Below are positions 1,664 through 57,701 of a DNA stretch of 64,000 nt, piece by piece. The stretch covers positions 62,001 through 126,000 of the forward strand of contig NTMA01000025.1 in NCBI GenBank assembly GCA_002917075.1. The letters run 5' to 3'. Each line of letters begins with the position of its first letter. The first letter of the stretch is position 1. This stretch comes from Hawksworthiomyces lignivorus. Lineage: Eukaryota; Ascomycota; Sordariomycetes; Ophiostomatales; Ophiostomataceae. Position numbers and translations under genes: made by a program. Below the pieces are notes generated by a model. The model was not told the origin of the DNA, did no database searches, and worked only from the letters and a program-made list of their open reading frames with translations.

Positions 1664-2071
1664 ATTTGGGTGCTTCTGATCTTGACAGATGAAGAGAAAA
1701 TAACTCAACTGCCCATTACCAACTTCGTCCTTCATCATGATTTGTGATTACACTCACGTGCTACTTACCAATAGAACTACTGTATCTGGCACTTGTAGAG
1801 GGTGGGGTCGGCGGGGATGTCAGCCTTGTTTTTCAGCCGCATTGTTCGTGTACGACGCAATTATTGCATCGTCTAGCGCCATATACATCACGAAGCTAAG
1901 GGCAAAAAAAGTTTTCAATGAGCAGCATATAATGTAATCACAGTATATTTTGCAACAATCAACCAACCTTGGCTTACGTCACAGTCAGGTAAGACTGCTA
2001 GCATTTGAATTTTTCAGGTAAACTGAAACTCGGCGGTTGAGCCAACTGAAATATATTGGCTTATTACAGAC

Positions 2072-5000
2072 ATGCCTCGTCTTCGTGAATGTGAAGAATG
2101 GCGTCTGCTTCAAGATTTAAGTTTCGCTTTAGGCAACTACAAAGCTCTGTATAACACACAGCAGCGAACCACCTCGCGAAGCTGGGAATACAGTACCCAG
2201 ATCCAACTTAAGCTTTTTGAAACTGAGCTACGCCAGATTTTCCTTATCAGTGAACCAACCCACGATCTGCCATCCTCTTTTTTTGAAGAGTGCGAAAACA
2301 AGCTTCGTCGATTGTGTAACATGCTAAATAGACTCGTTCGGCCTGATTTCTCGACAGGTGCCCTTTTACACACCTCGATCAGCAATTCGAAGTACCCGCA
2401 CTTGTTAGGATTAATTCACTCTCTACAAGACTTCGAGAACTCAGATACTTCATTTGACTTGGCATGGGGTCTACACGAAACTCTGTTTATGCCCTCGGAA
2501 AACAGGGAACAACTACTGGATGACATAGAGACTGCGAGAGAGTGGAATACGTTCTCACAACAGCTCTACCCTCTAGGCCATAGCCTGACGCATAGACCAG
2601 GGATGAAACAGAAGAAAATGGCATGGGAAGACACAAGTATACGGCATCATACTCCGGAAGCGTTGGAGGCAATCTTCCAGCGAACAACATGTAGGGAGCC
2701 GCACGAGGTCATGTTAAGACTGACTGAGAAGTCAGTCGTAGACGAGTCTACGTCAAAATTACATCTTTTACTGCCATGCTGTCCGAACACAGACTACTGG
2801 CAACAGGCGATATATGATTTGAGTACAAATCATCATAGGCAAGTCTATCAACTTATTGAGAAGGACCGCAACATTTTGATGCATTGTTAACATATGTAAA
2901 GGGAAGAGAAATGCTTCTGGGAGATCCATAGCATTTGCAAAGATCTACAGCCCCATGCGAGCCAGGGAAAGGGTTTACGCTTGTTGATTCGGTCATATCG
3001 ATTATTCGGGGCGTGGAACGAACAGATGACGGAAACATTCCAGTTAAGAACATGCAATAAGCAAACTCTCCAAGAAATGGTGGAAGGCGGTGTTTTTCGA
3101 CGGCTAGATGCTAGTTTTTTTGGCAAGAAGCCAGTCGCTCGATACAGCTTAAAAGAGAAGCGGACTTTAGCGGTCCAGCTCGGGCACTGCCTCATCGATT
3201 TCTTCGATTACCGACTGAACTCTGAAAAGATCCACGTTTTCACTCCAGCTGGAGGCAACTTCCAGAAGCATCCTCCATATCTGACATTTGCGCCTGATTC
3301 CTCCGCTACAGAAGAACTCCGCATCTTTGAATTCGGCCATCCAATTCTTCTATACTTTGCCAAGCTTCTCCTAGAAATTGATCTCGGAGAAAAAATCGAC
3401 GTTGAAATAAGTCCACAGCACGCAGAAAACCACAAAAGCTTTGGAAAATTGCACTCTTGTGTCGATAAATTAGAATTGGACCGGAATAGCTATTATCTCC
3501 AGGCGATAAGGGGCTGTCTAGTTGTCCATACCGAAATAACGAAATCATTACAGAACAGTGGCACATCAAGTAGAGATGCCGACATGGAGATCAGAGAAGC
3601 GATATATCAGCATATCGTAAAGAACCTTGAGCTTGAGTTAAGAACGTTCATCCACGTGCTCCACAACAAACGAGAACGATCAGTATCTCCGCCTCCATCC
3701 CCAGCTGCCAGAGAGAATCTGGGCATTGGGACCGGTTTTTGGGAAAGTGCATCCGCCTCAAGCAGAAGCAAAGCTATTTCAGAGAGCCATGCGGAACTAT
3801 GGAATGCGAGACTAACCATGCAGTCACCGCCTAAGAGACCTCGTACCACGGATCTAAACTACTGTTCGGCGTCAGCATTACGTTCTCGATATTCGGCGTT
3901 TACAGTACCTGCATTACCCTTCGCATCACTGCATGGCTCGACCAGTAGAACTCCAGTGCACGGAAATTGCGGTTTCTTTGATGACAATACTACAGAATAC
4001 TCCTTTAATATGTGAGCTCGGGATTCTTATCCCTCATCAACTTTATTTTTAATTTAAGTAGTTATACATTGTTCGTCTCTTACAAGACATAGATGCAAAT
4101 ACGCCGATGACTTCGTGGATGACCATCAAAAAATATACAGTCAGGTTATCACAGACGTGGAAAAGGAACAAGAGTCCATCTACAGCGGTCCTAGTATCTC
4201 AGAACCCATTTTCCCCTCTAAGGGCTCCCGGATCAAAATTGCAGTACTTGATACTGGTGTTGATATGTCTCATCCACACCTGGAAGCAAGAAAAGAGCGG
4301 ATCAAAGACGTACGAAGCTGGATAAATGGGCTCGAAGGAAAGCAGGATCGGAATGCCGGAGATGCCTCCGGCCACGGTACTCACATAACAGATCTCCTTC
4401 TCGACGTGGCACCGGATTGTGATGTTTACGTTGGTCGCGTCGCGGAACATGATCCAGTCAGTCTGGATCTGATTGCAAAGGTACGGGCCCAGGCCAGCTA
4501 TGTTTGTGCTTAGGAGCTTTTTTTCAATCATGATCTAACAGACTGAACCACAGGCCGTTATGTTCGCCGTGGATGACTGGCAAGTGGATATCATCTCCAT
4601 GTCGTTTGGCTTCGAAGATGAGACCCTCAAAAGCTTCGACGTCTTGGGGAAGGCCATAAAAGCTGCCCACGCGCAATGCGTCATCATGTTTGCCGCAGCA
4701 TCGAACAGCGGGTCGCACACACCTCCTGCTTTCCCGGCCCGCCACAGAGATGTCTTCTGTGTGTCTGCAAGCGACGGGAAGGGTAACGCCGGGCCGATGA
4801 GTCCCACGCCACACCCGAAGTCGTACAACTTCAGCGCACTGGGCGTGGCAGTGAGTTCAGCATGGCCGAAGGCCTTATGCACCCGTCCGTGGATGTTACG
4901 TCGATCGGGAACGTCATTCGCGGCGCCCGTAGCAGCTGGCATTGCAGCGATGGTGCTGCTGTACGCCAGGCAGAATCTCACCGAAGAAGAGGCAGCGCGG

Positions 5001-5159
5001 TTTAAAGAGCACGGCAATATGGAGGCTATGTTGTATTGCCTGTCGGACGCTAGAGATGGCTACGATGTAATCTCAACAAAAGAATTTTTCAAGAGGTCTG
5101 TGGAGGATAGAAATTCGACAATGAGGTCGATCCTGGCTGGGACGTGGAGAAAAGGATGA
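2072..5159 (+). CDS. DUF7580-like / subtilisin-like serine protease (peptidase S8) protein
   Basis: Proposed exons 2072-2838, 2932-4011, 4093-4480 and 4554-5159 give 946 residues. Residues 1-600 are helical and resemble the fungal DUF7580 region that precedes S8 domains or occurs in STAND-like proteins (LHLLLPCCP, YSLKEKRTLAVQLGHCLIDF). Residues about 660-930 are a complete subtilisin domain: Asp669 in VLDTGVD, His710 in GHGTH, oxyanion Asn796 in AAASNSG and Ser866 in GTSFAAPVAAG. There is no signal peptide, so the protease probably acts inside the cell. Introns 2 (4012-4092) and 3 (4481-4553, branch TCTAAC) are clear. Intron 1 is best read as a GC-AG intron (donor AG/GCAAGT at 2839, acceptor CATAG at 2931); it removes two in-frame stops at 2888 and 2897. 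A GT..AG alternative is 2886-2942. Divergent from the C2H2 gene. Such proteases are suspected effectors in fungal self/non-self systems; the substrate is unknown. Confidence 0.85.
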
Positions 5160-5660: not shown

Positions 5661-6998
5661 ATGATAAAGCACCGCTGCCTAGCCACGGTAATGTATGAGG
5701 CACCCGCCGACACCGCCAACGACGAGCACCAGACCACCGTTCGCTGCAACGGCCGCCTGTTCAACATCAACATGGCTGCTGCCTATTTCCACGACTCGCC
5801 GACTCTCTTGGCATGCTTTCAGCGCTTTCTGCTGGCTGAGCGGGAGTTAGTATATGACGAGGAAGACCTAGCGACCTATGAAGGAGGCAGCGCAGAAGAT
5901 GAGAGGGACTCATTCCATCAATGGCTCATCGCCACCTTTCAGCCGGTCTTCCGTGCTCACGCGCCAGACGTGCTACCGTCATTCGACCCAGATGTGATCC
6001 GGTCCGGCACCGCTCGCCCCGTGTTGGCTGAATACATGTTCCCGCAAGTATTTGAATGCCGGCTTGAAGCACAGCGAGGCAAGGCTAGACCAATTTGTGT
6101 CGGCAAGCAAGTGGAATGGATCCCACCGGTGAATCGCATTCCCACAGACCTCCTGGTGGAACTGGACCGCCTGAGCGTGCCGCGGTATGCGCCGTCTGAG
6201 ATCGCCGTAGCCTTTGAAAAGCCCGACGACGCATTGCGAGAAATGCCTGGTCGCGTGCTCGTCGATGTAGACCGCAGCGGGCACCCAGACACAGCTTGCC
6301 ATTTCAAGTTTTTCTTGGGTGGCTTTGAGGGGTCGCTTGCAGCCGAACTGCGTGGTCATCTACGAGTCCTCGATGCTCAACTGAGTGCGCACATCCGTGT
6401 TATCCGGTTGGTCGGCATAGTCTGGCTTGAAGAGTATGCGGACGCCTCTGACGAGGACAAAGACGGAAACATGGTCCCGTATCCAGAATCACTTCTAGGC
6501 CCTGTGGGCGGCCTGCTTCTGACCTATGTCAGCGAGGGCTGGGATGGGCTCTTGACTACGCGCGCTTGGGGCAGCCCGCCAGCAATGCGCCGACGGTGGG
6601 CGGACCAAGTACGAGAGACTGTGGCGGCGCTGCACGAGGCGGGCATCGTATGGGGCGATGCCAAGCCGGAAAACGTCATGGTGGATAATGACGACAACGC
6701 GTGGCTGATTGACCTAGGCGGCGGCTACACAGAGGGCTATGTAGACAAGGATAAGGCTGGGACAAAAGAAGGTGACCTGCAGGGCATGGCCAAGATTGAG
6801 GAGTATCTGATGGACAATGACAGATTTGAGATGACTAGTCAGGACGAGCAGGAAGATGAGCATGATGATAACGGTGAGGATGAACGAGAGATACACGAGC
6901 TACGCGGGGACCACGAGGACCGCGAGGGCGAACACGAGGGTAAGAACCGAGACTTAGAGCGAGAAGAAAGAAGTATGAGCAAGTGGAGAAAAATATAG
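5661..6998 (+). CDS. Protein-kinase-like protein with acidic tail
   Basis: A single 445-residue exon. The C-terminal half has a kinase catalytic-loop signature: LHEAGIVWGDAKPENVMVD with Asp at about 333 (WGD in place of HRD), and a metal-binding LIDLGGG in place of DFG near residue 350, followed by GYVDKDKAGTKEGDLQGM. This is the layout of fungal atypical kinase-like proteins that lack a clear glycine-rich loop; the N-terminal 280 residues give no domain I can name. Residues about 390-440 are almost entirely Asp, Glu, Arg and His (low complexity, highly charged). Activity cannot be decided from sequence, since the phosphate-binding lysine is not obvious. GC-rich coding sequence starts abruptly after AT-rich DNA. 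No intron signals are needed. Confidence 0.75.
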   Translation: MIKHRCLATVMYEAPADTANDEHQTTVRCNGRLFNINMAAAYFHDSPTLLACFQRFLLAERELVYDEEDLATYEGGSAEDERDSFHQWLIATFQPVFRAHAPDVLPSFDPDVIRSGTARPVLAEYMFPQVFECRLEAQRGKARPICVGKQVEWIPPVNRIPTDLLVELDRLSVPRYAPSEIAVAFEKPDDALREMPGRVLVDVDRSGHPDTACHFKFFLGGFEGSLAAELRGHLRVLDAQLSAHIRVIRLVGIVWLEEYADASDEDKDGNMVPYPESLLGPVGGLLLTYVSEGWDGLLTTRAWGSPPAMRRRWADQVRETVAALHEAGIVWGDAKPENVMVDNDDNAWLIDLGGGYTEGYVDKDKAGTKEGDLQGMAKIEEYLMDNDRFEMTSQDEQEDEHDDNGEDEREIHELRGDHEDREGEHEGKNRDLEREERSMSKWRKI

Positions 6999-7234
6999 CC
7001 AGGAGGGAGAGTTAGTGAAGATGTCATACTTACAAAGTGAAGCCTTTCATATACCAGCACTTTAATTGTACTAGCCATGTCTTGTGTTATCTCTCCCTGT
7101 GAGGTATGTCTTGGACCACCGTATGGGCTTTGCTGTATGTTAGAATTTTGTCAATATGTGCTCAAATTGGCGATCATTCGGATTGCTTGTGCCATGTTCA
7201 AATCTCCACAGCTGTCGTAACACACTCCGATTCA

Positions 7235-8506
7235 TCAATTGGTCTCTCTCAAAGCACTGTCATCATGGTGACCACCTCTCAGCAAGCGCCAGACAGCCCA
7301 GATAAACGGGATAGCGATCACCTCAACGAGTACAGCAAACAATATAACGGCTGTGCGCGACACGTTGAACAGTGCGCCGATAATTATGCTCCCGACAAGC
7401 CATGACACCCCATACACGGTGGTAAACAAGCCATATGCAGATGCACGACGGTCTGGCTCGACCATACCAGCCACTGCTGCCGGGATGATTGATTCATGTA
7501 CTCCCATACCGAGGCCCCAAAGAAACGCGCCGATGAAACCAAGGGCTATACCCCCTTCAAAAACCATTGGAGCGTAGCCGGCAGAGACGACGGTCAAGGG
7601 AAGAAGCAGAATAATCCCGAACCGGTCGAATGCGCGACCAAAAGCAAGGGATCCAATGCCAGCAACAGCCAGGGAAGCACCATAGCATATCGGAATAAGA
7701 GTGATAGACATAGTCTTGTCAAGGGTAAAGCGGTAGGCGATCAAGGGATAGTCTGCAAACCCGGCCGCGACCAATGCGACAGCAACGAGGTACAGCCAAA
7801 AGGGCCGCGAGAGCCGTGAGTTCCTTCCGGCTGCATCTCCGCCTTCCAAATCTTGCGGGCGAGGATAGACGAGCCGAGCAGCAACCATAAGAGACAACAT
7901 GACCGCGGCCGGTATTGCCAGGTAGGCAAATGCGTACACGTAGCTCCCATTGGTCTTGGCCAAAATCAAGGAGACGAAGAGCGGCCCAAACAGCGCTCCG
8001 AATTGGTCAAGGGCTTCGTGCACTCCAAAGCCCCAACCATAGCCGATCTGCTTCGCTGCGTGTGCGATCATGGCGTCCCGAGGGGGGTTGCGAATTGCCT
8101 TGCCGATGCGCTCGAGGATGATTAGGAAGGCAGCCACATGCCACGACGGGGCTGCTGCAAGCAGTGGCACGGCAGACATCTGCAACGTATAGCCTGCAAT
8201 AGCTATGGGCCAGTAGAGGCCTGTCTTGTCCGCGGCTCTCCCAGAGAACAGTCGCAAGGCGTAGCCAATGAATTCACCGAGCCCTGTGATCAAGGCTATC
8301 ATAAAGGAGCCGAGACCGAATGTGCTCAAGTACTGGCCAAGTATGCTTCGAGAACCTTCATAGGTAAAATCAGCAAAGAAACTCATTACACCAACCATCA
8401 GAATAAACTTTAAAGATGCTGTAGTCTGTTGAGAATGGAGGGTAATGCCTCGAACAGTAGTCTCTGGCACTGCGGCTGCCCCAGTTCCTGTATGGGAACT
8501 TGCCAT
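7235..8506 (-). CDS. MFS transporter of bacterial type
   Basis: Intronless; 423 residues from the ATG at 8506, which I prefer because it begins just before the first conserved block. An in-frame ATG at 8560 would add 18 residues and overlaps a possible acceptor site. Multiple hydrophobic helices and MFS loop signatures are visible: FSGRAADKTG after helix 2 and the block ERIGKAIRNPPRDAMIAHAA, then GWGFGVHEALDQFGALFGP. That last block is characteristic of a group of bacterial/archaeal MFS proteins about 400 residues long, unlike the usual fungal sugar or drug families, and the lack of introns agrees. Horizontal origin is therefore likely but is inference. The substrate cannot be named. The gene stands alone, with its 3' end facing the kinase-like gene. 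Confidence 0.85.
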   Translation of the reverse strand: MASSHTGTGAAAVPETTVRGITLHSQQTTASLKFILMVGVMSFFADFTYEGSRSILGQYLSTFGLGSFMIALITGLGEFIGYALRLFSGRAADKTGLYWPIAIAGYTLQMSAVPLLAAAPSWHVAAFLIILERIGKAIRNPPRDAMIAHAAKQIGYGWGFGVHEALDQFGALFGPLFVSLILAKTNGSYVYAFAYLAIPAAVMLSLMVAARLVYPRPQDLEGGDAAGRNSRLSRPFWLYLVAVALVAAGFADYPLIAYRFTLDKTMSITLIPICYGASLAVAGIGSLAFGRAFDRFGIILLLPLTVVSAGYAPMVFEGGIALGFIGAFLWGLGMGVHESIIPAAVAGMVEPDRRASAYGLFTTVYGVSWLVGSIIIGALFNVSRTAVILFAVLVEVIAIPFIWAVWRLLRGGHHDDSALRETN

Positions 8507-11681: not shown

Positions 11682-12836
11682 ATGGCGGCATCTGACAAGT
11701 TCCATGGCTGGCTGGGCCTCACGCCTGACAGTATCAAAGGAAAGATGGTATGGGGCGAATTTGAGCCCAAGAAGTGGTCAGAAGACGACGTCGACATCGA
11801 GATTAGCCATTGCGGTATCTGCGGTTCAGATCTGCACATGCTCCGTTCCGGCTGGGGCCAGACTCCTTACCGTAAGTCAATACAACTTCTGCACTAACTG
11901 CATGTGCCATGCACATATCGAGAATATTTGCTAATGCAGTTGCGCCATATAGCCTGCGTTGTCGGCCATGAGATTATTGGCAAGGCTGTCCGTGTCGGCA
12001 AGAACGTCAAGCATGTCAGTGTTGGCGACCGCGTCGGTGTGGGAGCACAAGCACGGTCGTGCCTTCAGGCAGACTGCCCGGAATGCAGCAACGGACTGGA
12101 GAGCTACTGTGCTCGCGAACCAGTGAACACGTACGGCTCAGTTTACCCGAGGGGCGAGGGCAAGTCATACGGTGGTTACGCCACGCACAATCGCACCAAC
12201 GGACACTTTGTCTTCAAGATCCCAGACGGCCTGGGCTCTGCCGAAGCCGCTCCCTTGCTCTGCGGTGGTGTTACAGTTTACTCTCCTCTGAAGCAGAATG
12301 GCGCTGGCCCTGGAAAGACCGTTGGCATCGTCGGTGTCGGCGGACTGGGACATTTTGGCGTCATCTTTGCCAAGGCTCTCGGATCGGACAAGGTCGTTGC
12401 CATCTCTCGCAGAGCTAACAAAAGAGATGATGCTCTCAAACTGGGTGCGGACCAGTACATCGCCACTGAAGACGACAAGGACTGGGCGACGCAAAATGCG
12501 CGCACCCTGGACCTGATTGTGTCTACCATTTCGAGCGACAACATGCCCCTTACTCAATATCTCGGGTTATTAAAGGTCGGCGGGACTTTCATCCAGGTTG
12601 GCGCCCCTGACGGCGGCAACCTGCCGCCTATCAACGCATTCACAATAATTGGAGGCGGCATCAAAGTTGGCGGTAGTCTCATCGGTGCCCCATGGGAGAT
12701 TAATGAGATGCTTCAGCTTGCAGCCGACAAGAAGATTAAGCCTTGGGTGGAGAAGCGGCCTATGAAGGAAGCAAATGCTGCTGTTGTTGACATGCAAGCT
12801 GGAAAGGCCAGATTCAGGTATGTTCTGGAGGCATGA
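11682..12836 (+). CDS. Zinc-dependent, NADP-type cinnamyl-alcohol-dehydrogenase-like alcohol dehydrogenase
   Basis: Exons 11682-11871 and 11953-12836 (intron GTAAGT..ATATAG, 81 bases) give 357 residues, the usual MDR length. Expected role: reversible reduction of aldehydes to alcohols in the cytosol. Catalytic zinc ligands are Cys47 (CGICGSDLH) and His69-Glu70 (VVGHE); four structural-zinc cysteines follow in SCLQADCPECSNGLESYC. The Rossmann motif is GVGGLGHFGV. The closest known groups are CAD and yeast ADH6/ADH7. The start is the ATG at 11682 after a TATA-driven leader; an earlier TTG-initiated frame extension is not a plausible start. The splice join restores TPYPCVVGHE exactly. Confidence 0.93.
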
Positions 12837-15226
12837 AAATAAGATTGGTTTAGAGCATTAGATGGTGCTTGAACCACTAGAAGAGGTAGGTCTTGGTAAG
12901 GCAGAGATGTGGCCATTTTCTTCGCCAACTTTGCAGTGTGCGGTGCTATTTCAAATCAGCTATCGCGAGATTTAGGTGGGAAAACGATTCAGCGCTTCCT
13001 ATTTTGGTTTAGTACTCCCTGTGACAACATAATTTTGTTAGAGAGTGCGTAGACCCAGTAATCCTGACCAATAAGAATAGAGGACTTTAGGTGCCCTGAG
13101 CAACAACACTCGCATAAGTCAAATAGTGAGGCAATTTACTCCGTAGCCGTAGGCAGATATTTTGCTTAGAATCAACACAACAATGCCGGACTCCACTTAG
13201 GCGGTGACAAATTTTCCCTGTGTATGCATCACCCCATCTTTATTAGGTGTTAAACCGAATTTATTAATAACTGGTTTACAGACGGTTACCGCTGCTCGAC
13301 AGGTACAGTTACAGACGACGATTAGTTATTGTAAATAGTATAATAGAAAGTACGGTGGCCGCTACCTTTACGAACCGCTCACTGCTTTTTCTAGATACAA
13401 TATTTTAAAAGTGTGTAGAATATTGATGCACTGCATACTATAGCGAAAATAGCGCTAAGCTGTAGCGTATAGGGTGTTATAAAGTTTTCACTACAAAAAA
13501 ATTATAGAGAATAACATATCTAAATTTTAGTGATTTCTAAAAATTCAATAAATTAGTATGCACACTGTATTTTAACGGCTTTAATACTGGCGGTAAGCGG
13601 TTTCTCGTGAAGTATAAGCCGATGAGTATCTGGCGGTTGTTGTACGGCACGGCTGAGGATGAGGCTCTTTTCCTGGCGGGCGCCGTGCGTAGCTTGGTGC
13701 GTAAGGCGGACTGCAAGTCGTGGCTGCCCGAGGTGGAGCCAGACGACGAGCAGGTGGCGTCGATTCACTGCGTTTGGTTGCACTACTCCGTAGCTTAGGT
13801 ATTGTTGTGTTGCCTCTTTTGTTTACGCTCATCTGACATTTTGTTAGCGCTGACCCCTGTGCCTTTCGTAGCCCTGTTCCCTGTCGGCAGCATCCTTTAC
13901 TTGCCTGCTACTGTTGCTTACAGAGCCTCCTTTTTTTTTATGCTCTATTCCATGGCTGCATATTTGTTGTCTTCCCTTCTTCGCTCAAAAGTCTGTCTCC
14001 CTCCGCCCTTGTTTATCCCAACCTCCAGGGCGGTGAAAGTGTGCAAAATCCTGACTTGCAACCTACCCTATACAGTTGCGCAGCAGGCAACCTTGCCCGC
14101 TATAGCTCAATAGTATCGCTTTGATAATGATAGATCAAGGGCTATGCTAAAACAGGAATTTAGAAGAGATCAAAGATTACCGATTAACTATCCATGTGAT
14201 GGTGGCAATTGGTTCATAAAATATATTTACAGGCTTAACGAGAAACTGAAGAACAAATTCCTAGAAGCGGCGAGCCAGTCGTGTGCAATATGGGATGTGC
14301 TTTTTGGATGCGAAGAATAGCATCTTGGCTGCTGTCAGGGAACTCTACGAAACAGAGCCGGGCATTGTTTCGAAGGAGGCTGAATGCTCTTGCTCGGGGC
14401 TCTGAATTTTGATAGCTCTACAACCAGAGCAGGGGTACCGCCGTAACCAATATCTAGACGAGGACATGGGTAAGCGAGCAAATCTTAGAGACTGCAGATG
14501 AATAGCTCAATCAGGCTACCACAGTGCCGCCAGCTCCACGGGTACTTGAGTCATCCCGATGGTTATCCATTCGGCCCTGTTCATGGTGCCAATGGGGCTC
14601 TCGAACGACGTACCCATCGAGACGGAAATATTGGTGACTCTGGGGATCATGTCTATATGGCTGCAGAAGCCAGGGGCTTGTGGCACACAGCACAGTAGAA
14701 TGCATGGTATATTGCTTTTGCACTTCGCAGTTTTGCTTTTTGCACTTTTTGGTGACTTCATTCATTGGCTTGCTCTGCCAACAAAACGGCTAGCGTGTCC
14801 ATGAACGCCGACATCACAAGTCTTGATCTACACCACGGGGCCAGCGCATACATCGAATTTCCTCTTTGAGGATGCCCTGCGCCGCAGCATACCCGTAATG
14901 GGTGTGGAATACAAGGGTTCACGTTCAGCTTCTTTGATTAAAGTATCTTTTTCACATTTACTAGTTTCATTTCTGCACTTTCATTGCAATTTGACCGTTT
15001 TGATTTGTAGTTTGATAGCAAGCATTAAATACCGCCCCCTCCTCGATAGGATATTTTGGGGCGGTGCGTATTTTTGGGCTGCTCTTTTACCTTTTGATCA
15101 TTTGTGCGGATGTCCAGCTTTCCAAGGTCATATCGCTCTTGATTTTTGTTGTTCAGCCGTTTCGCACTGAGCGTTCAAGCCCGAAACAGCTTCTCTAACT
15201 ACACAACGCGGTGATCTGCTCCGCAA
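12837..15226. other. Gene-poor region
   Basis: No supported gene over 2.4 kb. AT-rich from 13000 to 13560, then a short GC-rich island (13580-13800) with an open frame on the plus strand (KRFLVKYKPMSIWRLLYG..) that has no family match I know; it may be a relic of a mobile or host gene. The 14.5-15.2 kb part has short open frames on both strands without domains and ends in the promoter of the hydrolase gene. Confidence 0.45.
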
Positions 15227-16753
15227 ATGGCACCGCCTGGACTTTATGTTGTCTTTGAGCCTGAATGCTATGCCCATGATGTAGGGATCGAGTATGTGTT
15301 TGTCGGCCCCCGCTTCCTTTGCATCCCGCTAACGGACCGTTCCACTAGCATCGTAGCGGTCCACGGCCTCAACTTTGAGAACAGCCCCAACCACAGTCAT
15401 GAAACCTGGACAGAGGGCGGCAAGCTCTGGCTCAAGGAGTTCCTCCCAAAAAATCTTCCGATCCACGCTCGTGTGATGCTTTTTGCGTATAATGGCAACC
15501 TAGACATCCATTCTTCAGCCCTCAAGACTGATGACCACGCAAAAGACTTGCTGCAATGGCTCTACTTGAAGCGCAAGGCAAGCAATCGTGTCTCCTTGCC
15601 ACACCATGTCCCACATCCTGACAAATTCATAGGATACGGCGTCTCAGAGGCCGCTCATGTTCATATGCCATAGTTTTGGTGGATTGATCGTTAAATCTGT
15701 CAGTGGCCAATCTGCTCAAACAATTTCCCCTGCTGACAATGGGTAGGCCCTTGTTGAGGCGAAATTGGACAAGACATACAACACAATCGTGAATGCGACC
15801 CGCCTTCTCGTTTTCTTTGCTACGCCGCACCAAGGTGGTAAGTATGGGAGCGTCGGCGAGGCTATGGTGAAATCCATCACAGAAAATATGCGACGGCCCA
15901 AAAGCCAGCTTTTGAAAGCACTGCGAGAGGGTTCGGACGAGGCAACAAAACGATTCGAGCAGTCCCGCCACCTGCCTGAGGAATGCCTGGTCGTCAGCTT
16001 CTTCGAGGGAAAGCCCAGCAAATCGGGGAACATTGTACGTCAACTGTCTGAGAAATCTTGGCATGCACATTTTCCTGACCTTGACCAGATTGTCGACAAG
16101 AAGTCTGCGACTCTGAATCTTCCAGGCTCACGCGAGAAGCAAGTGTCTATAGATGCGGACCACAAGAGTATTTGCAAGCTTGGTTCTAACGACGAGGATC
16201 TTACACGTGAGCTCGTCTTGAAAACGATTGCTGCGGAAGTCGAGAAGGCGCTGCAGATTGATCCAAACTGTTTGTACCATCTCTTCTCTGTATGTAAGTG
16301 GCCATTTCACTTGAAGCCGGCTAATTTTGTTATGCAGCAGACCACAGATACAGACGTACGTGGTCTGATGGTGAGAGGAGCCGCGAAAGCCCTGGGACCG
16401 TATTAGCAGTTTCCCAGTACAACAACGCTTTTGAGCCGACTGGGAGCGGCTACTCCGATGAGACTGATGAGTCCCACGAGTCCCACGAGTCCCACGAGTC
16501 CCACGTTGGCATTCCTCATCCTCCACTCTTAGAGGAACCTCGTGATTGGAATAACTCGTTCTCCGCTAGCTATGTCCGAGGTAGCACAACCCCGAACGCG
16601 GAGCGTCATCGGGACAGCTCCTTTTTCCGCGGCACCAGATTTGAAGTCAGCAATCACAGCCCTGGGCCACTAAACCTGAATACAGGCAGCGGGTCCCAAA
16701 ACAACAACAATGGCTCAGGGCGTCAGAATAACTATTGCGGTTTAAGACAGTGA
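15227..16753 (+). CDS. SesB-like alpha/beta hydrolase with C-terminal Asn/Gly-rich (amyloid-like) motif
   Basis: Six exons: 15227-15291, 15349-15577, 15633-15698, 15747-16034, 16089-16293 and 16338-16753; 422 residues, in frame throughout. Each join restores a conserved block: DVGID/IVAVHGLN, LYLKRK/DTASQRPL, LIVKS/ALVEAKLDK, GNI/IVDKKSATLN and LFSVS/DHRYR. This is the lipase-like domain found in fungal SesB proteins and at the head of many ankyrin or STAND proteins: nucleophile Ser112 in CHSFGG, FFATPHQGG, and His241 in DADHKSIC. The first Gly of the usual GHSLGG is Cys. A disordered linker with a (GluSerHis)n repeat leads to a C-terminal motif (about residues 391-422) containing LNTGSGSQNNNNGSGRQ. 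In characterised fungal systems such tails template onto a receptor's amyloid and switch on the hydrolase, leading to membrane damage and cell death. Intron 2 (15578-15632) uses a GC donor (AG/GCAAGC). Domain call firm; amyloid behaviour inferred. Confidence 0.82.
16465..16504 (+). repeat. 9-bp tandem repeat encoding Glu-Ser-His
   Basis: About four copies of the unit GAGTCCCAC, coding for a run of Glu-Ser-His in the linker between the hydrolase domain and the C-terminal motif. A length-variable spacer would be expected at such a site. Confidence 0.85.
16677..16714 (+). repeat. Copy 1 of the shared C-terminal motif sequence
   Basis: A 38-base stretch identical at 35 of 38 positions, by hand alignment, to 18587-18624 in the next gene, with the same internal spacing. 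It encodes the Asn/Gly-rich motif at the end of the hydrolase. Confidence 0.9.
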
Positions 16754-17826
16754 GGTCGTGTTTGACGTCGGCTCTGCCGCACAGCACGACGGAGGATGCA
16801 TATACAGACTATGAAAAAGAAAAAAAGGGGCGTGTCGTTGCGGAGGAGAGTTGAGAGAAGGACGCAGCAAAGGAGTAGTAAGATCATATGAGTTTACAAT
16901 TCAGACCTGTGACACCTGATCGCCCAACTTGTAGTTCACCGGTAACTGCAGCATCCCAACCAGATCTGTGGCACATGCCAAGCGCCAGCAAGGCACTAGA
17001 CTAGTAATACCAAGAAATGCGATCCTTGAGGCTTCAAGTTCAATATAAAAAAGACGTAACATGCCATACACAGTTGATCCTAGAGACAAAGGATCAGATA
17101 TCTGTCTTTAGAGGGAGAGCCGGCACACTGGAATTTCCAAACGAAAACCTGCATTGCCTACATCCGAGATTACGAAATGCAGCATGGTCTTTTTTGGCAC
17201 TTCCACCTTCCCGAAACTCTAGTGTCTGACACTCAGCCTTGTGTCTTCATCTTGATACCGATACCAGGGTAATAAATGTTATTTGGCCTATTCACCGCCA
17301 GGGTGGGAAAGCCAGGGTAACTGAAGTCACGACTGTAAAAGAAAAGTACCACACACCGCGACAAAACACTGCCAGAAAAATGGTGTAGGTACTTCACTCA
17401 ACATAGAAATTGAGCTAAAACTGAGGTGCTGATTTAACACTTATTACCCCTGTAAACCTATATTAATGTTTTAGCATTGCCAATGGCACCCTTATAAGTC
17501 GCTGGGCGCTAAGCGCTCGTCCAGGGCAATCTCGTATTGTTCTGTGTGGCGTTCGACACACATGCAGGACTCTTCGGAGCTGCTCTTTTCATCCCGCCAA
17601 GAATTTTCGCTTTATGAGGTCAAAAAGAAAAGGGGGTAAATGCCCGGAGCCTCTTTTCAGCTATCGCACCCTGGCGATTTAAGCCTCCCAGAGTTGTAAG
17701 TATTCCTGATATATAATCCCCGTAAAGGATAGGAATCTTCTCTTGTCAAACAATTTGTTCTAGACATGCTCCAGTTGGCCATTCAGCTTGCCGAAGAAAC
17801 TTTTTTCCCTTCCCTCATGCCTCACG
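16754..17826. other. Intergenic region with TATA box of the CBM18 gene
   Basis: No gene seen. TATATAAT at about 17710-17717 is a likely TATA box. ATGs at 17640 and 17766 lie upstream of the CBM18 frame but out of frame with it, so a 5' exon or a frame lesion may exist here. Confidence 0.5.
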
Positions 17827-18651
17827 ATGACCTTGACTATCAGTCAGGACAGTCTCTGCGGTGGCTCGACCCAGCAAACGTGCCTCGGCAGTAGTTTCGG
17901 GCCCTGCTGCTCAAGCAAAGGCTACTGCGACAAAGATGTGCTTCACTGTGGCACCGGATGCCAGAAGGAGTTCGGCATCTGCGGCGCCGCGTCCGTTACC
18001 ACAAACGGTTCGTGCGGCATCTTTGACGGAAATCCCGTCTTGTGCAACGGCAGCCGCTGGGGAAATTGCTGCGCCGCAAATGGAACCTGCGGAAGTGCTT
18101 CTTACTTTTGCGGCTGGGGGTGCCAAGGCGCTTTCGGGCAGTGTTACGCCGAGGCGTCCTCCTCGTCAACATCCTCGTCGACGTCCTTGTCAACGACCCC
18201 GTCAAAGTTCTTGCCGACGTCCCTGTCAACGACCATGTCGAAGTTCTCGTCAACGCCCTTGTCAACGTCCCTATCAGCTTTCACGTCAGCTTCCTCGTCA
18301 GCTTCTTCGCAGACCAGCAAGGGAAAGCCGTCGAATTTAGGGGTAGAGATTGGAGCGTCGATAGGTGGTTGTGTTCTGCTTGGACTGGTTATATTTTGCT
18401 TGTGGAAGTGGAATTGCTGCGGGTGGACGCGGAACCGAATACGAAGTGACGAAACTGACTCCAAGAAAGGGGAAAACGACACAGGAAAGAGTCCCATAGT
18501 TAACGTAATACTAAATAACACCAACAGCTCAGGACAAATAAACGAGAGCGGCGGACTTCACAACTACGGATCCGGCCCAGCAAACATGAATACAGGCAGC
18601 GGACCTCAAAACAACAACAATGGCCCAGGATCTCAGCACAACAGACACTAG
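17827..18651 (+). CDS. Two-CBM18, single-pass membrane protein with C-terminal amyloid-like motif (putative receptor)
   Basis: From the first in-frame ATG (17827), 274 residues. Residues 11-52 and 63-106 are two hevein-like chitin-binding (CBM18) modules, each with the full eight cysteines (CGG..C..FGPCCSSKGYC..C..CQ and CG..C..WGNCCAANGTCG..C..CQ). Residues 108-165 are a Ser/Thr-rich stalk, residues about 172-193 one hydrophobic helix (IGGCVLLGLVIFCLW) followed by basic residues, and residues 194-274 a polar tail ending in NMNTGSGPQNNNNGPGSQ. That tail motif matches the end of the upstream hydrolase. The layout reads as chitin-binding ectodomain, membrane anchor and intracellular signalling motif. 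Odd: no signal peptide after this ATG. The open frame continues upstream through a hydrophobic stretch (KKLFSLPSCLTMTLTIS) but has no in-frame ATG before a stop at 17761, so the true start may be in an upstream exon, or the start is broken. Domains sure; role inferred. Confidence 0.75.
   Translation: MTLTISQDSLCGGSTQQTCLGSSFGPCCSSKGYCDKDVLHCGTGCQKEFGICGAASVTTNGSCGIFDGNPVLCNGSRWGNCCAANGTCGSASYFCGWGCQGAFGQCYAEASSSSTSSSTSLSTTPSKFLPTSLSTTMSKFSSTPLSTSLSAFTSASSSASSQTSKGKPSNLGVEIGASIGGCVLLGLVIFCLWKWNCCGWTRNRIRSDETDSKKGENDTGKSPIVNVILNNTNSSGQINESGGLHNYGSGPANMNTGSGPQNNNNGPGSQHNRH
18587..18624 (+). repeat. Copy 2 of the shared C-terminal motif sequence
   Basis: Matches 16677-16714 at 35 of 38 bases (16- and 18-base identical blocks at equal spacing). 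Encodes the Asn/Gly-rich end of the CBM18 membrane protein. Confidence 0.9.
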
Positions 18652-21600
18652 CTGAGAATCAAGATGCCCGCCAGGGATCTGGACCTGTGGAATAGAAGGA
18701 GATTTGGGCGTCTAGTGGGAGAATGGCTTTTGTGCAGGGGTGTAGATGTTTTAATAATATGTAAATTTCAGCCTTTTTGTCTCGAGTCTCATTTCTGTCT
18801 TTTCATCTTTTTAATTTTCTTCCTTGACCGTCTCGGCGGGAAGCATTGCTTGCTGGTAACCACAGCTCGAAAGGGCTTCTGTGCCAATGAGACGCCGGGC
18901 TCTCAGCGCTGCCTGCCAGAGGAATTTATCAACTCTTTTGCTATCTCGTCGATGGCGGCTCCCCGCCAATCTGACTCTGCCAAATTCTTTGTGAATTGCG
19001 CAAGAGGCCGTCTTCGTAGGAGCTTGGTCGTCTTTCCGTCTTCAGCCTGAGTTGCTTCTGGTCCCTGAGGCTGGTTGATCAATTGTTTAGGACAGCGAAA
19101 CGTGGTGCTAGGTCGGTTTTTGGCGGAGCCGCAGAGGCGCGCTCCTTGACCGAGGCTAAGGATTGTCCTAGGTCAGACCCTACGATCTGGGAAGGAAGGC
19201 GGAGACTACGGGTCCATAGCTCGGAATCTGTGAACCCTCAGAATGTCCGCTAGGCAGCACATATACCACAAAATGCACATTTAGGGGCACGGGGGCACCA
19301 ATCTGCTCTATGCTAGACCGAAGCGGCTTATCACTTAATAAACCTAAGCCTAATTTCCACTAAATCTAATCCTGGCACTTAATCTAAAACCTGGGTGTGC
19401 CTATTTTCCCTTGCCAACCCTACGCAGCAGTTGTTCTTAAATCATTTCAATTAGATTTTATTATTTTGTGGTCCTTTTTATTTAGCTAGAAACGGTCTAG
19501 GCTCGTCCTCAAACTCTAAGAGGCTTAGACGTATTAGAAGACGAGATTACATCGTGCCGCAGTTGGGTGGTGTAACTGCAAATCCTTCTCCGTAGAGCTT
19601 CTGGACATTTGAAACAAGACGCACACCATCAGAACAACCGCCCAGCATACACGACTCTCCGTTCCGTGCAGTGGAGGAGGACGTCGGACTGGGCAAAATT
19701 CACTCATTATTTAAGGAGCTTAGAGCAACGAAAAAGGAGAGCGTGTTTTTTTCAAAGACGGGGGATGCATACGGCAAATGCCACGTCCTTTTCTGCGGGT
19801 GTTTCTACGTAATGCACCACTACAGTGTAAATATGTTCAACTTGTACTCGAAGAACATCGCTGTGAGCCGAGTAAATTTAGTGGGTTCTCGCAGATTTAG
19901 CGGTGTTGGGAGAGGTGTGGAGTATTCGGCGAAATGGGTAGTCTACGCAGGGGCTTTCTTCTTTAAGGGCCTGTTCTTTATCTTGAGCGCACAATTGCTG
20001 CGGAACATACCGTCCACCAGAACTACAACTCGCCCAAATAAACAGGTGTGTATGTGTGTTGTCCTTCTTCGACCTTGGATTTTTTCTCTCTTCGCTCTTG
20101 TTTCATGCTTCTCGTCGTCTCTTTCCCGTCTCTCTGAGTCTTTTCCAAGAGCAATTCGTGCTGATGAGGCTGATTCACATCTAATAGCTTCCAAACTAGT
20201 GGCAACTTCTACCTTTGTCTTTTAGGAGCTCAACCAGCAATTTCCCTCGCGGCTAGGTCGAACAGGAAGTAATTCCCTATCGGCTTCAACGCTGGCTTCT
20301 GCAAGTAAAGTGGCAAATGCCGCCGACTGCGTTCAATGGAGAAGCGAACTCATAAATGTGTGTGTTCCAATGCCGCTAACCTATGTCTTGCTAGCTGGTC
20401 CGCCTCGTACAGGACGGCTTAGCCCTTGCTAGTTCATGGTCAAGCATGGCTGGAAAGTGCTGCCGTTTGATACGATCGAACACAGACTAGAAAATTGCAC
20501 GCAAACCCCCCAGTGAGTGGTACAGCTCTCATCCATTCGCTAAGTCCATGGGTCTCTTGAATTGGTTCTCCGCCGGCAGGTCGGGCGTGGAAGGCGCTGA
20601 TCTTCCCTGCCTGGTTACGAGCAGAAGCTAGACGGAGCCACTGTCGACCCCCACGCCTGACTGGGAGCTGGGGTTTGTCGACATCCTACCCATAAACAAA
20701 AAAGCCGGAGCACACTCTCCAGCAGACTCCATTCCGGAGCCGCTGACCTACACCATTCTGTACTCCGACAGCGCTCCCAGGAGATAACGGCCGGAGCTCT
20801 CAGAAATTCCCAGTGACGGCAGCAACACCAATGCCTAATGATCCACCGTGGTAGAGGACTGGACGACAAACAGCAACACAACAAGAGGTCGAGGCTGACG
20901 GCAGACGAAACCCTATCCTAGAGCATGGCTGGGTTGCAACGGCCGATCCCGTATTCCTCCGTGGCCGAGACAGTTGCGGACGCATGGACAGCGGAATGTC
21001 TCCTTCAAACGACGCCGCAGCCCTGGCTACTCGACGCCGGCGACATCGTGGAGGACATAGCACACCCACAAGTTTCACCCATCCGTGAAATGGCGTGGGT
21101 GGGCATCTGCGGCTCCAACACCTAAATATACAATAATCAAAGGAAAGCATCGACGCAGGAGATGCCATAGGAAGGACCGCCTAAGTAAGAAAACCGCTGA
21201 GGGAGACGTAAGAGTTAGGACGGAAAGCCACATATCACGGAAATCCACGTATCTTACCCGGCGCTAGAAATCACTCCACAACTGGGCAGAATTAAGAAAC
21301 AGCAGAAGGTTGTGAGTATGCATTATTTTCTAATACACAAGGACTTCCTCCAGCAGAGCTCCTCGGATTGATGATCACCACTTTTATTCGACAGCGGTGG
21401 CCTGCCGTCCCACCGTGTCAGACCGTGAGATCCTCCTAGAACACAGGATAACGGCGAGGCGATTGTCGTGGAGGTAACAAACAGCCTGTAGGTGAGAGTA
21501 TCTGTTAGAATATGCTTCATTTGTTCCTCGACTCGTAAACATCGTTCTCGTTTTCGCTCTTCCGTTTCTCTCCGATGTCTACTGACGCTTTCCTCTCATA

Positions 21601-55734: not shown

Positions 55735-57701
55735 ATGCCTTTCTCATTTTCGTCGCTCAATCCGCGATCGTATAAGTACGAGAGGCTTGACACGGAAACA
55801 CGACAAATCCGACTTATCCATGTCCTTGCGACGGGCAAGAAACATGCTGGCCGAGTGCTGGGTGAAATCACTGGTTTTGAGGGGTACATTCACACTGATC
55901 TCTGAATGGTGAGATTGCGCTAAGTTACCGAGCAATATCCTATGCTTGGACCAAAAGTAAGCAATCTAGAAAAATCAAGGTCACGGATTACAAGGGCCGA
56001 CAGACCAGCAAGACAATGAAGGATCTCCAAGTTCCCGAAGACGTGTACAACATGCTGCTGTATTTTGTCACGATCCAGAACAATGGCACGCAGGAGGATA
56101 GAGATTGTAGTTGGATGGGGGGACTCCATCTCTGGATCGACCAAATTTGCATAAACCAGAAGGATACGAAAGAAAAGGCCTCACAGGTAGATATGATGAG
56201 CGATATCTACCGGAAAGCCTCGGGCGTTGTGATATGGCTTGGCTTCCCGAGTGCAGATAGCAACTTGGCCCTCGACTTTATTCGAAATTTTGATCCGAAC
56301 TATTACGCCAGGTTGCTAGGGCAAAGGCCGGCTGGTCCTAACCAGCGGCCGGTGCATGCGCTCTGCGCGGACCCACAAGACCCAAAACCATGGGAGGCCC
56401 TCCGGGCACTGCTGTCTCGCGAGTGGTGGACACGTACCTGGATCATCCAAGAAGCAGCCCTGCATAAGAAGACCTGGGTCGTTTGCGGCAAAGCTTCAGC
56501 CGGTCTAAGCGACTTTGACGATGTATTGAGACAGTTTCTCCGCCATGGCCAAGATCACGTCCTCATGCCGCCGCACGTGCGCAATGTATTCCGTGGGGTC
56601 CCCTTCATAGAGCTCTTGATTAATTGGGAAGATGTCACCCGTAAAATATTTAATTCAGATGGTGCCGACCTCATCAAGTTGATGCGACTCGCAAGCACGG
56701 CCGGCTGCACCAAACATAGAGACCGGATCTTTGCCCTGCTCAGTCTCTCGATGAAACGGTACCGTGATAGTATCGTAGTCGATTACGAGTCACCCATTCA
56801 GGATGTCCTGCTCCGATCCTTCGCTAACATAATCAACACCGGGGGCCTGATCGGCCTGCAACTCGGAAAGCTGCAAAAGACGGAAAATTTTGGCCTCCCG
56901 AGCTGGGCGCCGGAGCTCGGGACGGAGCTGGGAGATGGAGAGTGGCTCTGGCACCGAACCTACGCCGGAGAGAAACCGTGGCTTGCAGGCGGCAGAGCAG
57001 CGCATTGGAACCAGCTCGGTATGGCAAAGTGGACGATGCCAGAGAATGAATCACCACTGCTAGGAAAGGGTACACCAAATCTACGGTTTTCGTCAGATCT
57101 CCGCACATTGGCGGCCCGCGGCATCGTCTTCGATTCCATTGAGACCACGCATCCGGCATGGCTGCACTCTAAGGCGGAGATAGCCGCGGCGGCCACTGGC
57201 AAGCTGGAAATTGATCCTGAGACAAGAAAGGAGCACATTAGGAAGCTGCAGAATGTCATTGAGGCGTCGGCCGCTGCTAAGGCAAATGTGTATCCCAACG
57301 AGCTGTACGCGTTCATGATTACAATGATCGCGACTCGCTACGGGCCGGATCGGCGCATCCCGAGTTATGTAGGCCCGAAAAAAATCTGCCGAAGAGGATG
57401 TGGCTGTCGATTTTGAAGAGAGGCGAACTCGAAAAGGCGGTCAGCGGGCCCAGGATACCTCGACGGGTGCAACGAGCGGTCATTCATTATTACCACCATG
57501 GGTTATTTTGGGGTTGCGTCGCCGAGGGCTCGGCTTGGTGATTTGGTATGCGTGCTGCATACCGCGCATGTACCGTTTGTGTTGAGAAAGAGACTAGGCG
57601 ATGGTGAGCGCTGCTACGAGTTTGCGGGCGACGCTTACGTGTATGGGATCTCTGAAGGAGAGATATTTGAGTGGGCAAAAGTCCCGTGGAAAGAGCACTG
57701 A
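55735..57701 (+). pseudogene. HET (heterokaryon incompatibility) domain gene, apparently broken
   Basis: An ATG at 55735 opens a HET N-terminus (SYKYERLDTETRQIRLIHVL) that hits TGA at 55903-55905. Shifting frame by one base there continues straight into SYRAISYAWTKSKQ, LHLWIDQICINQKDTKEKAS and IYRKASGVVIWLG, the three HET signature blocks. The frame then stays open to a TGA at 57414-57416, after which the same frame resumes with the usual HET C-terminal block (ERSFIITTMGYFGVASPRA..GDLVCVL) and ends at 57701. A 54-base in-frame stretch, 57369-57422 (GTAGGC..GAGAG), could be an intron removing the second stop, but it has no good branch site. HET proteins trigger cell death after non-self fusion; this copy looks inactivated by at least one lesion. 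Sequencing error is the alternative. Confidence 0.75.

What the first reader, a model, noticed from the sequence alone, without database searches (positions are those of the whole stretch)
15227..18651. Candidate new signalling pair: CBM18 membrane protein and SesB-like hydrolase sharing an amyloid-like C-terminal motif
Seen: two tandem genes end in nearly the same Asn/Gly-rich motif (LNTGSGSQNNNNGSGRQ and MNTGSGPQNNNNGPGSQ). One is an alpha/beta hydrolase with an intact nucleophile elbow; the other has two eight-cysteine hevein-like modules, a Ser/Thr stalk and one membrane helix. Known: fungal SesB hydrolases and NLRs share short Gly/Asn-rich amyloid motifs (sigma and PP classes) that pass the activation signal. 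Inference: here the NLR is replaced by a cell-surface chitin-oligomer or wall-damage sensor whose tail would seed amyloid on the hydrolase and so cause localised cell death or membrane remodelling. I know of no described transmembrane lectin that signals this way.
Basis: partly seen in the sequence, partly recalled or inferred. Interest (0 to 1): 0.93.

Follow-up and report, generated by a model that had tools for sequence, protein, structure and literature searches.

The report
Membrane lectin sharing a hydrolase's amyloid-like tail
In one fungal genome, a hydrolase of a kind tied to fungal cell-death signalling sits beside a membrane protein with chitin-lectin-like modules, and both end in the same short asparagine-rich motif; this looks like an amyloid-signalling pair whose usual internal receptor is replaced by a surface protein, but its function is unproven.

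Summary
Gene 1 (15227-16753, five exons, 440 aa) is a SesB-like alpha/beta hydrolase. Gene 2 (ORF 17764-18651) has two eight-cysteine hevein-like modules, a Ser/Thr stalk, one membrane helix and a tail that should face the cytosol. Their ends share 69 bp at 81% identity. In the 43.7-Mb assembly each tail finds only the other. Pfam's sigma model (PF17106) finds 8 places there: six above cut-off in three clusters, then these two below it. The tails are sigma-like but divergent. No NLR domain was matched from the contig's left end (77 kb off) to 181 kb on the right.

Best reading: fungal amyloid signalling with a surface protein in the NLR's place (0.4). Rivals: a membrane anchor driven by an unlinked NLR, a functionless tail duplication, or a decaying gene 2.

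The parts
15227..16753 (+). Gene 1, SesB-like alpha/beta hydrolase with C-terminal sigma-like tail; exons 15227-15589, 15648-15698, 15747-16034, 16089-16293, 16338-16753; 440 aa
   Evidence: open spliced frame; DUF676 over cut-off; 41 homologues at E<=1e-10, ten best 50-57% identity
15648..15698 (+). Micro-exon with the nucleophile elbow (RPLMFICHSFGGLIVKS)
   Evidence: GT..AG introns on both sides; homologues such as P0024 read KPLVFICHSLGGLVVKE at the same place
16338..16663 (+). Last exon of gene 1 up to the motif: linker without Pfam match, including a SHE repeat
   Evidence: no Pfam match at E<=1 outside the hydrolase domain and the tail; sequence reading
16664..16732 (+). Gene 1 sigma-like motif GPLNLNTGSGSQNNNNGSGRQNN (69 bp shared with gene 2)
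   Evidence: 81% DNA identity to 18574-18642; PF17106 16.4 bits in the whole protein, 18.9 in an 87-aa tail piece, 21.2 bits in the genome scan
17764..18651 (+). Gene 2, CBM18-like single-pass membrane protein; open frame of 295 codons, first usable in-frame ATG 17827; start and signal peptide not settled
17857..17982 (+). Hevein-like module 1 (8 cysteines)
   Evidence: cysteines 11-52 of the protein read from 17827; Chitin_bind_1 below cut-off
18013..18144 (+). Hevein-like module 2 (8 cysteines)
   Evidence: cysteines 63-106
18175..18336 (+). Ser/Thr-rich stalk
   Evidence: 57% Ser+Thr over 54 residues
18349..18420 (+). Membrane helix, net positive charge on its C-terminal side
   Evidence: hydropathy maximum 2.28 at residues 175-193, flanking charge +1 before and +3 behind; AlphaFold helix 179-198 in the only block of higher confidence
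18421..18573 (+). Juxtamembrane part of the tail, inferred to face the cytosol
   Evidence: topology; no Pfam match at E<=1 in a 71-aa tail piece besides sigma
18574..18642 (+). Gene 2 sigma-like motif GPANMNTGSGPQNNNNGPGSQHN

Best explanation
The two genes form a variant of the fungal sigma-type amyloid-signalling unit. A single-pass surface protein with two hevein-like modules outside and a sigma-like motif inside takes the place of the NLR. Clustering of the ectodomain by an unknown ligand, not necessarily chitin, would bring the tails together, nucleate a cross-beta assembly, and template the matching tail of the SesB-like hydrolase. The hydrolase would then be gathered and switched on at the plasma membrane, with local lipid hydrolysis, growth arrest or cell death. 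Shown here: the gene pair, the homologous tails, the hydrolase family with motif-like catalytic residues, a predicted membrane helix, and no NLR domain match nearby. Inferred: amyloid formation, direction of signalling, ligand, topology and outcome.
For: Each tail finds only the other in 43.7 Mb (2 candidates scored in each). PF17106 at E<=1 gives 8 hits: 6 above cut-off in three clusters, then these two (E 0.018 and 0.486), about 1.8 kb apart. Shuffles of the motif region: 0 of 10 match PF17106. A model of this genome's own six sigma tails: 0 of 2000 shuffles reach the gene 2 tail's score and 4 of 2000 the gene 1 tail's (1994 and 1995 of the shuffles received a score). Profile-profile probability 77%, E 2.1e-5. 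The two tails are closer to each other in DNA (local score 73) than any other of the 28 pairs of eight sigma-type tails (next highest 36); published sigma partners are likewise most alike within a cluster (PMC3321046, passages). NLR domains on contig C110: 0 of 89 NACHT matches, 0 of 150 NPHP3_N matches, 1 of 51 NB-ARC matches, that one about 181 kb away. SesA on C110: 0 of 16 matches. Membrane helix with positive charge behind it. Published s*27, a frameshift 120 bp before the SesB stop, is one of the s* mutations, and s* strains lack the growth alteration (PMC516043, passages). Precedent for the layout: PGRP-LC.
Against: The tails are below the PF17106 cut-off. In a six-frame scan of the held loci the genome's own sigma model gives the gene 1 tail 7.2 bits, E 1.8, equal to an unrelated frame in L050, and does not list gene 2's tail at E<=10. 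The aromatic residue of GxGxQF is missing. The pair was found in no other organism: 22 gene 2 hits and 41 gene 1 hits, no sigma-like tail by a crude pattern over the 63 proteins, and 0 hits among 3 candidates for the gene 2 tail region. 5 of 8 recalled sugar-contact positions of gene 2 are changed. No convincing signal peptide. The C133 SesB/SesA pair also has no matched NLR domain closer than about 66 kb, so a missing NLR alone does not show replacement. PF17106 missed the divergent motif of the C114 NLR, so hidden partners are possible. Not all first-look candidates of the NLR searches were scored (89 of 151 NACHT, 150 of 175 NPHP3_N; 72 of 72 NB-ARC). The contig ends 77 kb to the left of the pair.
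Confidence: 0.4

Rival explanations
1. Membrane anchor or second effector. Gene 2 is not the sensor; an unlinked NLR starts the assembly and gene 2's tail recruits the hydrolase to the plasma membrane or is itself an output. This is like SesA and SesB, which are two effectors of one NLR.
For: Canonical loci hold two effectors with the motif (SesB and SesA at C114 and C133). The genome has many NLR domain matches (89 NACHT, 150 NPHP3_N, 51 NB-ARC, partly the same genes), and two NLR genes carry sigma exons (C118; C114).
Against: No other place in the assembly was found with this motif subtype, and the C118 NLR motif, the only NLR motif compared, is no closer to the window tails in DNA than codon shuffles (local scores 17 and 19 against shuffle means near 15.6).
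Confidence: 0.22
2. The shared tail is a recent duplication or conversion of 69 bp without signalling function; the two proteins merely end alike.
For: The homology is a short block with nothing comparable around it; 13 differences, codon positions 6/2/5, give no clear sign of constraint; no similar tail was found elsewhere.
Against: It lies in frame at the C-terminus of both proteins, on the side of gene 2 inferred to be cytosolic, next to an effector type known for such tails, and the motif resembles sigma beyond composition.
Confidence: 0.22
3. Gene 2 is a decaying copy of an ordinary CBM18 membrane protein.
For: No convincing signal peptide; 5 of 8 recalled contact positions changed.
Against: All 16 module cysteines and an open frame of 295 codons are intact. 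No 2-kb step of the window meets both usual indices of repeat-induced mutation (thresholds recalled; 5 of 32 steps exceed the TpA/ApT one alone). Two of three membrane relatives are also modelled without a signal peptide.
Confidence: 0.14

Closest known systems
Sigma (ses) locus of Nectria haematococca: SesA, SesB and NLR HET-eN with sigma motif
   Same: SesB-like hydrolase with a C-terminal G/N/Q-rich repeat motif shared with a gene next door; motifs most alike within a cluster (PMC3321046, PMC5485727, passages)
   Different: partner is a CBM18-like membrane protein, not SesA or an NLR; motif lacks the aromatic position and fails the Pfam cut-off
Drosophila PGRP-LC / Imd cRHIM signalling
   Same: membrane protein with a wall-sugar-type ectodomain and an amyloid-type motif inside, partner with a matching motif (PMC9496462, passages)
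   Different: unrelated domains and motif; output there is NF-kB; amyloid reported there, not tested here
NWD2/HET-S and PNT1/HELLP/SBP fungal amyloid signalling
   Same: receptor and effector in neighbouring genes share a short motif; SBP is a putative lipase
   Different: HET-s-type and PP motifs, NLR receptor, HeLo-type pore former present
Fungal CBM18 single-pass membrane proteins (P0001; Aspergillus P0002, P0003)
   Same: two CBM18 modules, Ser/Thr stalk, one membrane helix
   Different: their short tails have no sigma-like motif by reading and by a crude pattern

Membership tests
Sigma amyloid motif (Pfam NACHT_sigma PF17106) | score above the curated cut-off (27.6 bits) | tested here: not met
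   16.4 and 11.1 bits in the whole proteins, 18.9 and 14.8 in tail pieces; 21.2 and 16.6 in the genome scan
Sigma amyloid motif (Pfam NACHT_sigma PF17106) | similarity beyond composition | tested here: met
   0 of 10 shuffles match PF17106; 0 of 2000 and 4 of 2000 shuffles reach the real scores under the genome's own sigma model. Against: that model scores the gene 1 tail at background level in a six-frame scan and does not list gene 2's
Sigma amyloid motif (Pfam NACHT_sigma PF17106) | three repeats of GxGxQFNxx / GGTQNINT (PMC3321046) | tested here: inconclusive
   three 9-residue units with G and Q in register in the last two, first unit degenerate, no aromatic residue at the F position (my reading)
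Sigma amyloid motif (Pfam NACHT_sigma PF17106) | forms amyloid and cross-seeds its partner | not testable with these tools
   needs peptides
SesB-like effector hydrolase | alpha/beta hydrolase domain with intact nucleophile elbow and motif-like catalytic residues, homologous to NLR effector domains | tested here: met
   DUF676 over cut-off; homologues fused to NB-ARC/NACHT; ICHSFGG and DADHKSI align with ICHSLGG and HADHSTI of P0024 (by eye)
CBM18 (Chitin_bind_1 PF00187) | score above the cut-off (27.8 bits) | tested here: not met
   16.6 bits; absent from the 20 places listed genome-wide
CBM18 (Chitin_bind_1 PF00187) | eight-cysteine frame and homology to certified members | tested here: met
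   16 of 16 cysteines aligned with P0001-P0003; P0001 scores 43.4 bits
CBM18 (Chitin_bind_1 PF00187) | Ser and aromatic sugar-contact residues | tested here: not met
   module 1 S,K,Y,H; module 2 A,N,T,F: 5 of 8 lack the Ser or aromatic residue; the six modules of P0001-P0003 lack it at one of four positions each (contact positions recalled from hevein work)
Fungal NLR/effector amyloid pair | an adjacent NLR with the same motif | tested here: not met
   nearest NLR domain matched on the contig is about 181 kb away; the contig ends 77 kb to the left
Cell-surface receptor | signal peptide or proven N-out insertion | tested here: inconclusive
   no convincing signal peptide found; helix and charges fit N-out

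The most novel reading that the evidence does not exclude
A fungal cell-surface protein with hevein-like modules acts as an NLR-free receptor for sigma-type amyloid signalling. Its clustered tail seeds a SesB-like hydrolase at the plasma membrane and links events at the cell wall directly to regulated death or growth arrest, a fungal parallel to fly PGRP-LC.
Probability: 0.28. Interest if true: 0.88.

Novelty: new variant of a known kind. Interest (0 to 1): 0.62.

Why it matters
In the passages I read, amyloid signalling motifs in fungi are treated as NLR-to-effector links, and their triggering cues are called unknown apart from a handful of allorecognition NLRs (PMC7889193, passages). A membrane protein with a lectin-type outer domain and a matched tail would offer a nameable sensor and a simple test, peptide cross-seeding plus ectodomain swaps. 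It would also suggest that receptor types in amyloid signalling are exchangeable across kingdoms.

Tried and rejected
Pure low-complexity coincidence between the tails: rejected, since the tails share DNA and shuffles fail.

A repeat or mobile 69-bp element: rejected, only two places found in the assembly (that search skips simple repeats and scored 2 candidates).

Repeat-induced mutation: no 2-kb step meets both usual indices (thresholds recalled; 5 of 32 steps exceed the TpA/ApT index alone, among them 12001-14000 and 18001-20000).

A hidden NLR or SesA: no NLR domain match in the window and no SesA on the contig. With Pfam I scanned 15 of the window's 33 open frames of 170 codons or more (gene 1's third exon counted through the spliced protein), plus three shorter ones (list); the rest were not scanned.

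A direct hit to solved structures for the ectodomain: none at E<=10; the relative P0001 matches lectin-C, lectin-D and hevein.

AlphaFold of gene 2 (alignment of 4): mean pLDDT 42.5, 16 of 274 residues at 70 or more, around the helix, so no fold search was run.

Conservation of the pair in other fungi: not found, but the negative is weak. The protein tool reaches only relatives that share words and length, scored only the top 7981 candidates for gene 2 and had 3 candidates for the tail region; the pattern is crude and was not run on known sigma proteins as a control; the genome collections on hand are prokaryotic. I looked at 12 of the 22 gene 2 hits and 17 of the 41 gene 1 hits as sequences; one search scanned all 63.

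Papers: no row of the listings that I saw shows a fungal membrane protein with a sigma or other amyloid signalling motif. The listings are partial: 20 of 809, 20 of 609, 15 of 27, 12 of 79, 10 of 72, 10 of 204 and 10 of 60 papers. Passages only were read in PMC5485727, PMC3321046, PMC8086366, PMC9815663, PMC12261475, PMC12258605, PMC7889193, PMC12881547, PMC9496462 and PMC516043. 'Transmembrane' was among the terms searched inside six of them (PMC5485727, PMC9815663, PMC12261475, PMC12258605, PMC7889193, PMC12881547), and the passages shown named no such protein. Daskalov et al. 2012 mention a Nectria protein (EEU38904.1) with a sigma-type C-terminus away from any NLR gene; what it is was not checked. 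No supplementary file was opened.
Full report
What is there. The window lies in an unnamed 43.7-Mb assembly (C110:62001-126000), fungal by its gene content. Gene 1 is at 15227-16753 on the plus strand. Three introns with GT..AG ends give one open frame. A fourth, 16035-16088, is inferred because homologues run like P0023, SFFEGLPYGKMGLIVDKKSATLN, where the unspliced frame has 18 more residues. The product has 440 residues: a DUF676-type alpha/beta hydrolase (21.1 bits, cut-off 20.3, scored on the 458-aa version), a linker, and a tail that ends ..SNHSPGPLNLNTGSGSQNNNNGSGRQNNYCGLRQ. Gene 2, about 1.1 kb downstream on the same strand, is an open frame of 295 codons with two eight-cysteine hevein-like modules, a Ser/Thr stalk, one hydrophobic helix and a tail that ends ..GGLHNYGSGPANMNTGSGPQNNNNGPGSQHNRH.

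Is the shared tail real? Yes. A stretch of 69 bp is 81% identical (E 5e-14), and no other plus-strand alignment between the two gene regions has an E below 0.012. In the assembly the 92-bp end of gene 2 has one other match, in gene 1; the gene 2 tail peptide has one other match, gene 1 (E 0.0046); the gene 1 tail peptide has one other match, gene 2 (E 4.9e-4). All three searches were run to E 10. The tool's first look passed 2 candidates in each, so distant relatives such as the canonical sigma tails are not reached this way.

Is it a sigma motif? Partly. Daskalov et al. 2012 define sigma as three repeats of GxGxQFNxx or GGTQNINT (PMC3321046, passages). The tails here read as three units (degenerate, GSGxQNNNN, GxGxQxN) without the aromatic residue. 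Pfam's sigma model scores them below its cut-off. In the genome scan the only 8 places at E<=1 are six above the cut-off, in three clusters, and then these two. The clusters are C114 (SesB, SesA, and an NLR with a divergent motif exon), C118 (SesA and NLR) and C133 (SesB and SesA). Shuffling the motif region removes the Pfam match in 10 of 10 cases. With a model made from this genome's six sigma tails, 0 of 2000 shuffles reach the gene 2 tail's score and 4 of 2000 the gene 1 tail's, and the profile-profile probability is 77%. Against it, in a six-frame scan of the loci held, that same narrow model gives gene 1 only 7.2 bits (E 1.8), equal to an unrelated frame, and does not list gene 2 at E<=10, whereas it gives the divergent C114 NLR motif 20.5 bits. 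I therefore call the tails sigma-like and divergent.

Partner context. In published sigma clusters the motifs are more alike within a cluster than between orthologues (PMC3321046). Here the two tails are the most alike of all 28 pairs among eight sigma-type tails in DNA (local score 73; the next best is 36). No NLR domain was matched near: of 89 NACHT matches (151 candidates) and 150 NPHP3_N matches (175 candidates) none is on this contig, and of 51 NB-ARC matches one is, about 181 kb away; the contig ends 77 kb to the left of the pair. None of 16 SesA matches is on this contig. One caution is that C133 also has no such NLR match closer than about 66 kb, and PF17106 missed the C114 NLR's motif, so an unlinked or divergent partner cannot be excluded.

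The hydrolase. Of 41 homologues at E<=1e-10 the ten best are 50-57% identical, named ones among them from Fusarium, Zopfia, Xylaria and Metarhizium; several of the 41 are fused to NB-ARC or NACHT. The serine elbow and the late histidine motif are kept (by eye). In Nectria, one SesB allele of the s* strains, which lack the growth alteration, is a frameshift 120 bp before the stop (PMC516043, passages). This fits a needed tail but does not prove it; the other s* alleles sequenced are missense changes.

The membrane protein. Of 22 homologues at E<=1e-3, P0001-P0003 share the double CBM18, stalk and helix layout but have unrelated tails. A crude pattern scan of all 63 proteins retrieved found no sigma-like tail; the two matches fell in CBM18 cysteine stretches. 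A search with the gene 2 tail region gave 3 candidates and no hit at E<=10. All 16 module cysteines are kept, but the positions that in hevein contact the sugar (Ser19, Trp21, Trp23, Tyr30, recalled) read S,K,Y,H in module 1 and A,N,T,F in module 2. The six modules of the relatives keep the Ser, the second aromatic and the Tyr, and all lack the first aromatic. A changed ligand or lost binding is more likely than ordinary chitin binding. No convincing leader peptide was found by listing upstream exons with one intron. P0002 and P0003 are also modelled without one, P0001 has one. AlphaFold gave no usable model except the helix.

Mechanism. The best reading is a sigma-like amyloid unit with a surface protein in the NLR's slot: ectodomain clustering nucleates the tail assembly, which templates and activates or concentrates the hydrolase at the membrane. 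Only the anatomy is shown. The layout has a precedent outside fungi: PGRP-LC binds peptidoglycan at the fly cell surface and its cytosolic cRHIM forms amyloid that recruits Imd (PMC9496462, a review, passages). Rivals are an anchor or second effector driven by an unlinked NLR, a functionless tail duplication, and a decaying gene 2.

Novelty. Seven paper searches listed, in the rows shown, no fungal membrane protein with an amyloid signalling motif; the passages read treat these motifs as NLR-effector links with the NWD2/HET-S, PNT1/HELLP/SBP and SesA/SesB/HET-eN systems as models. If it works as inferred, it is a new variant of a known kind. A single genome and a sub-threshold motif keep the score moderate.

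Noticed in passing
window 2027-5159: DUF7580 domain over two open frames (55.1 and 208.9 bits) followed by a subtilase (Peptidase_S8) frame; a layout I recall from fungal cell-death and self/non-self proteins, about 10 kb upstream of the pair.
   Followed up: partly
window 55899-57416: HET (heterokaryon incompatibility) domain protein, 89.2 bits.
   Followed up: partly
P0051 and P0053 (Annulohypoxylon and Hypoxylon SesB-like proteins): C-terminal tails with a different repeated pattern (GDxNxxxQxG, GNGN..QIG); possibly another amyloid-type motif on SesB relatives (by eye).
   Followed up: no
L057 (C133) 6942-8363 and L060 (C118) 2607-4193: Both of these sigma loci lie beside what reads as an FAD-linked D-lactate dehydrogenase gene, which may mark an old segmental duplication (by eye).
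   Followed up: no
L059:3856-4089 (C114): Short exon before an ankyrin NLR with a divergent sigma motif that the PF17106 genome search did not list.
   Followed up: partly
window 14805-15170: Open frame with a weak Der1-like match (16.5 bits, below cut-off) just upstream of gene 1, perhaps a gene remnant.
   Followed up: no
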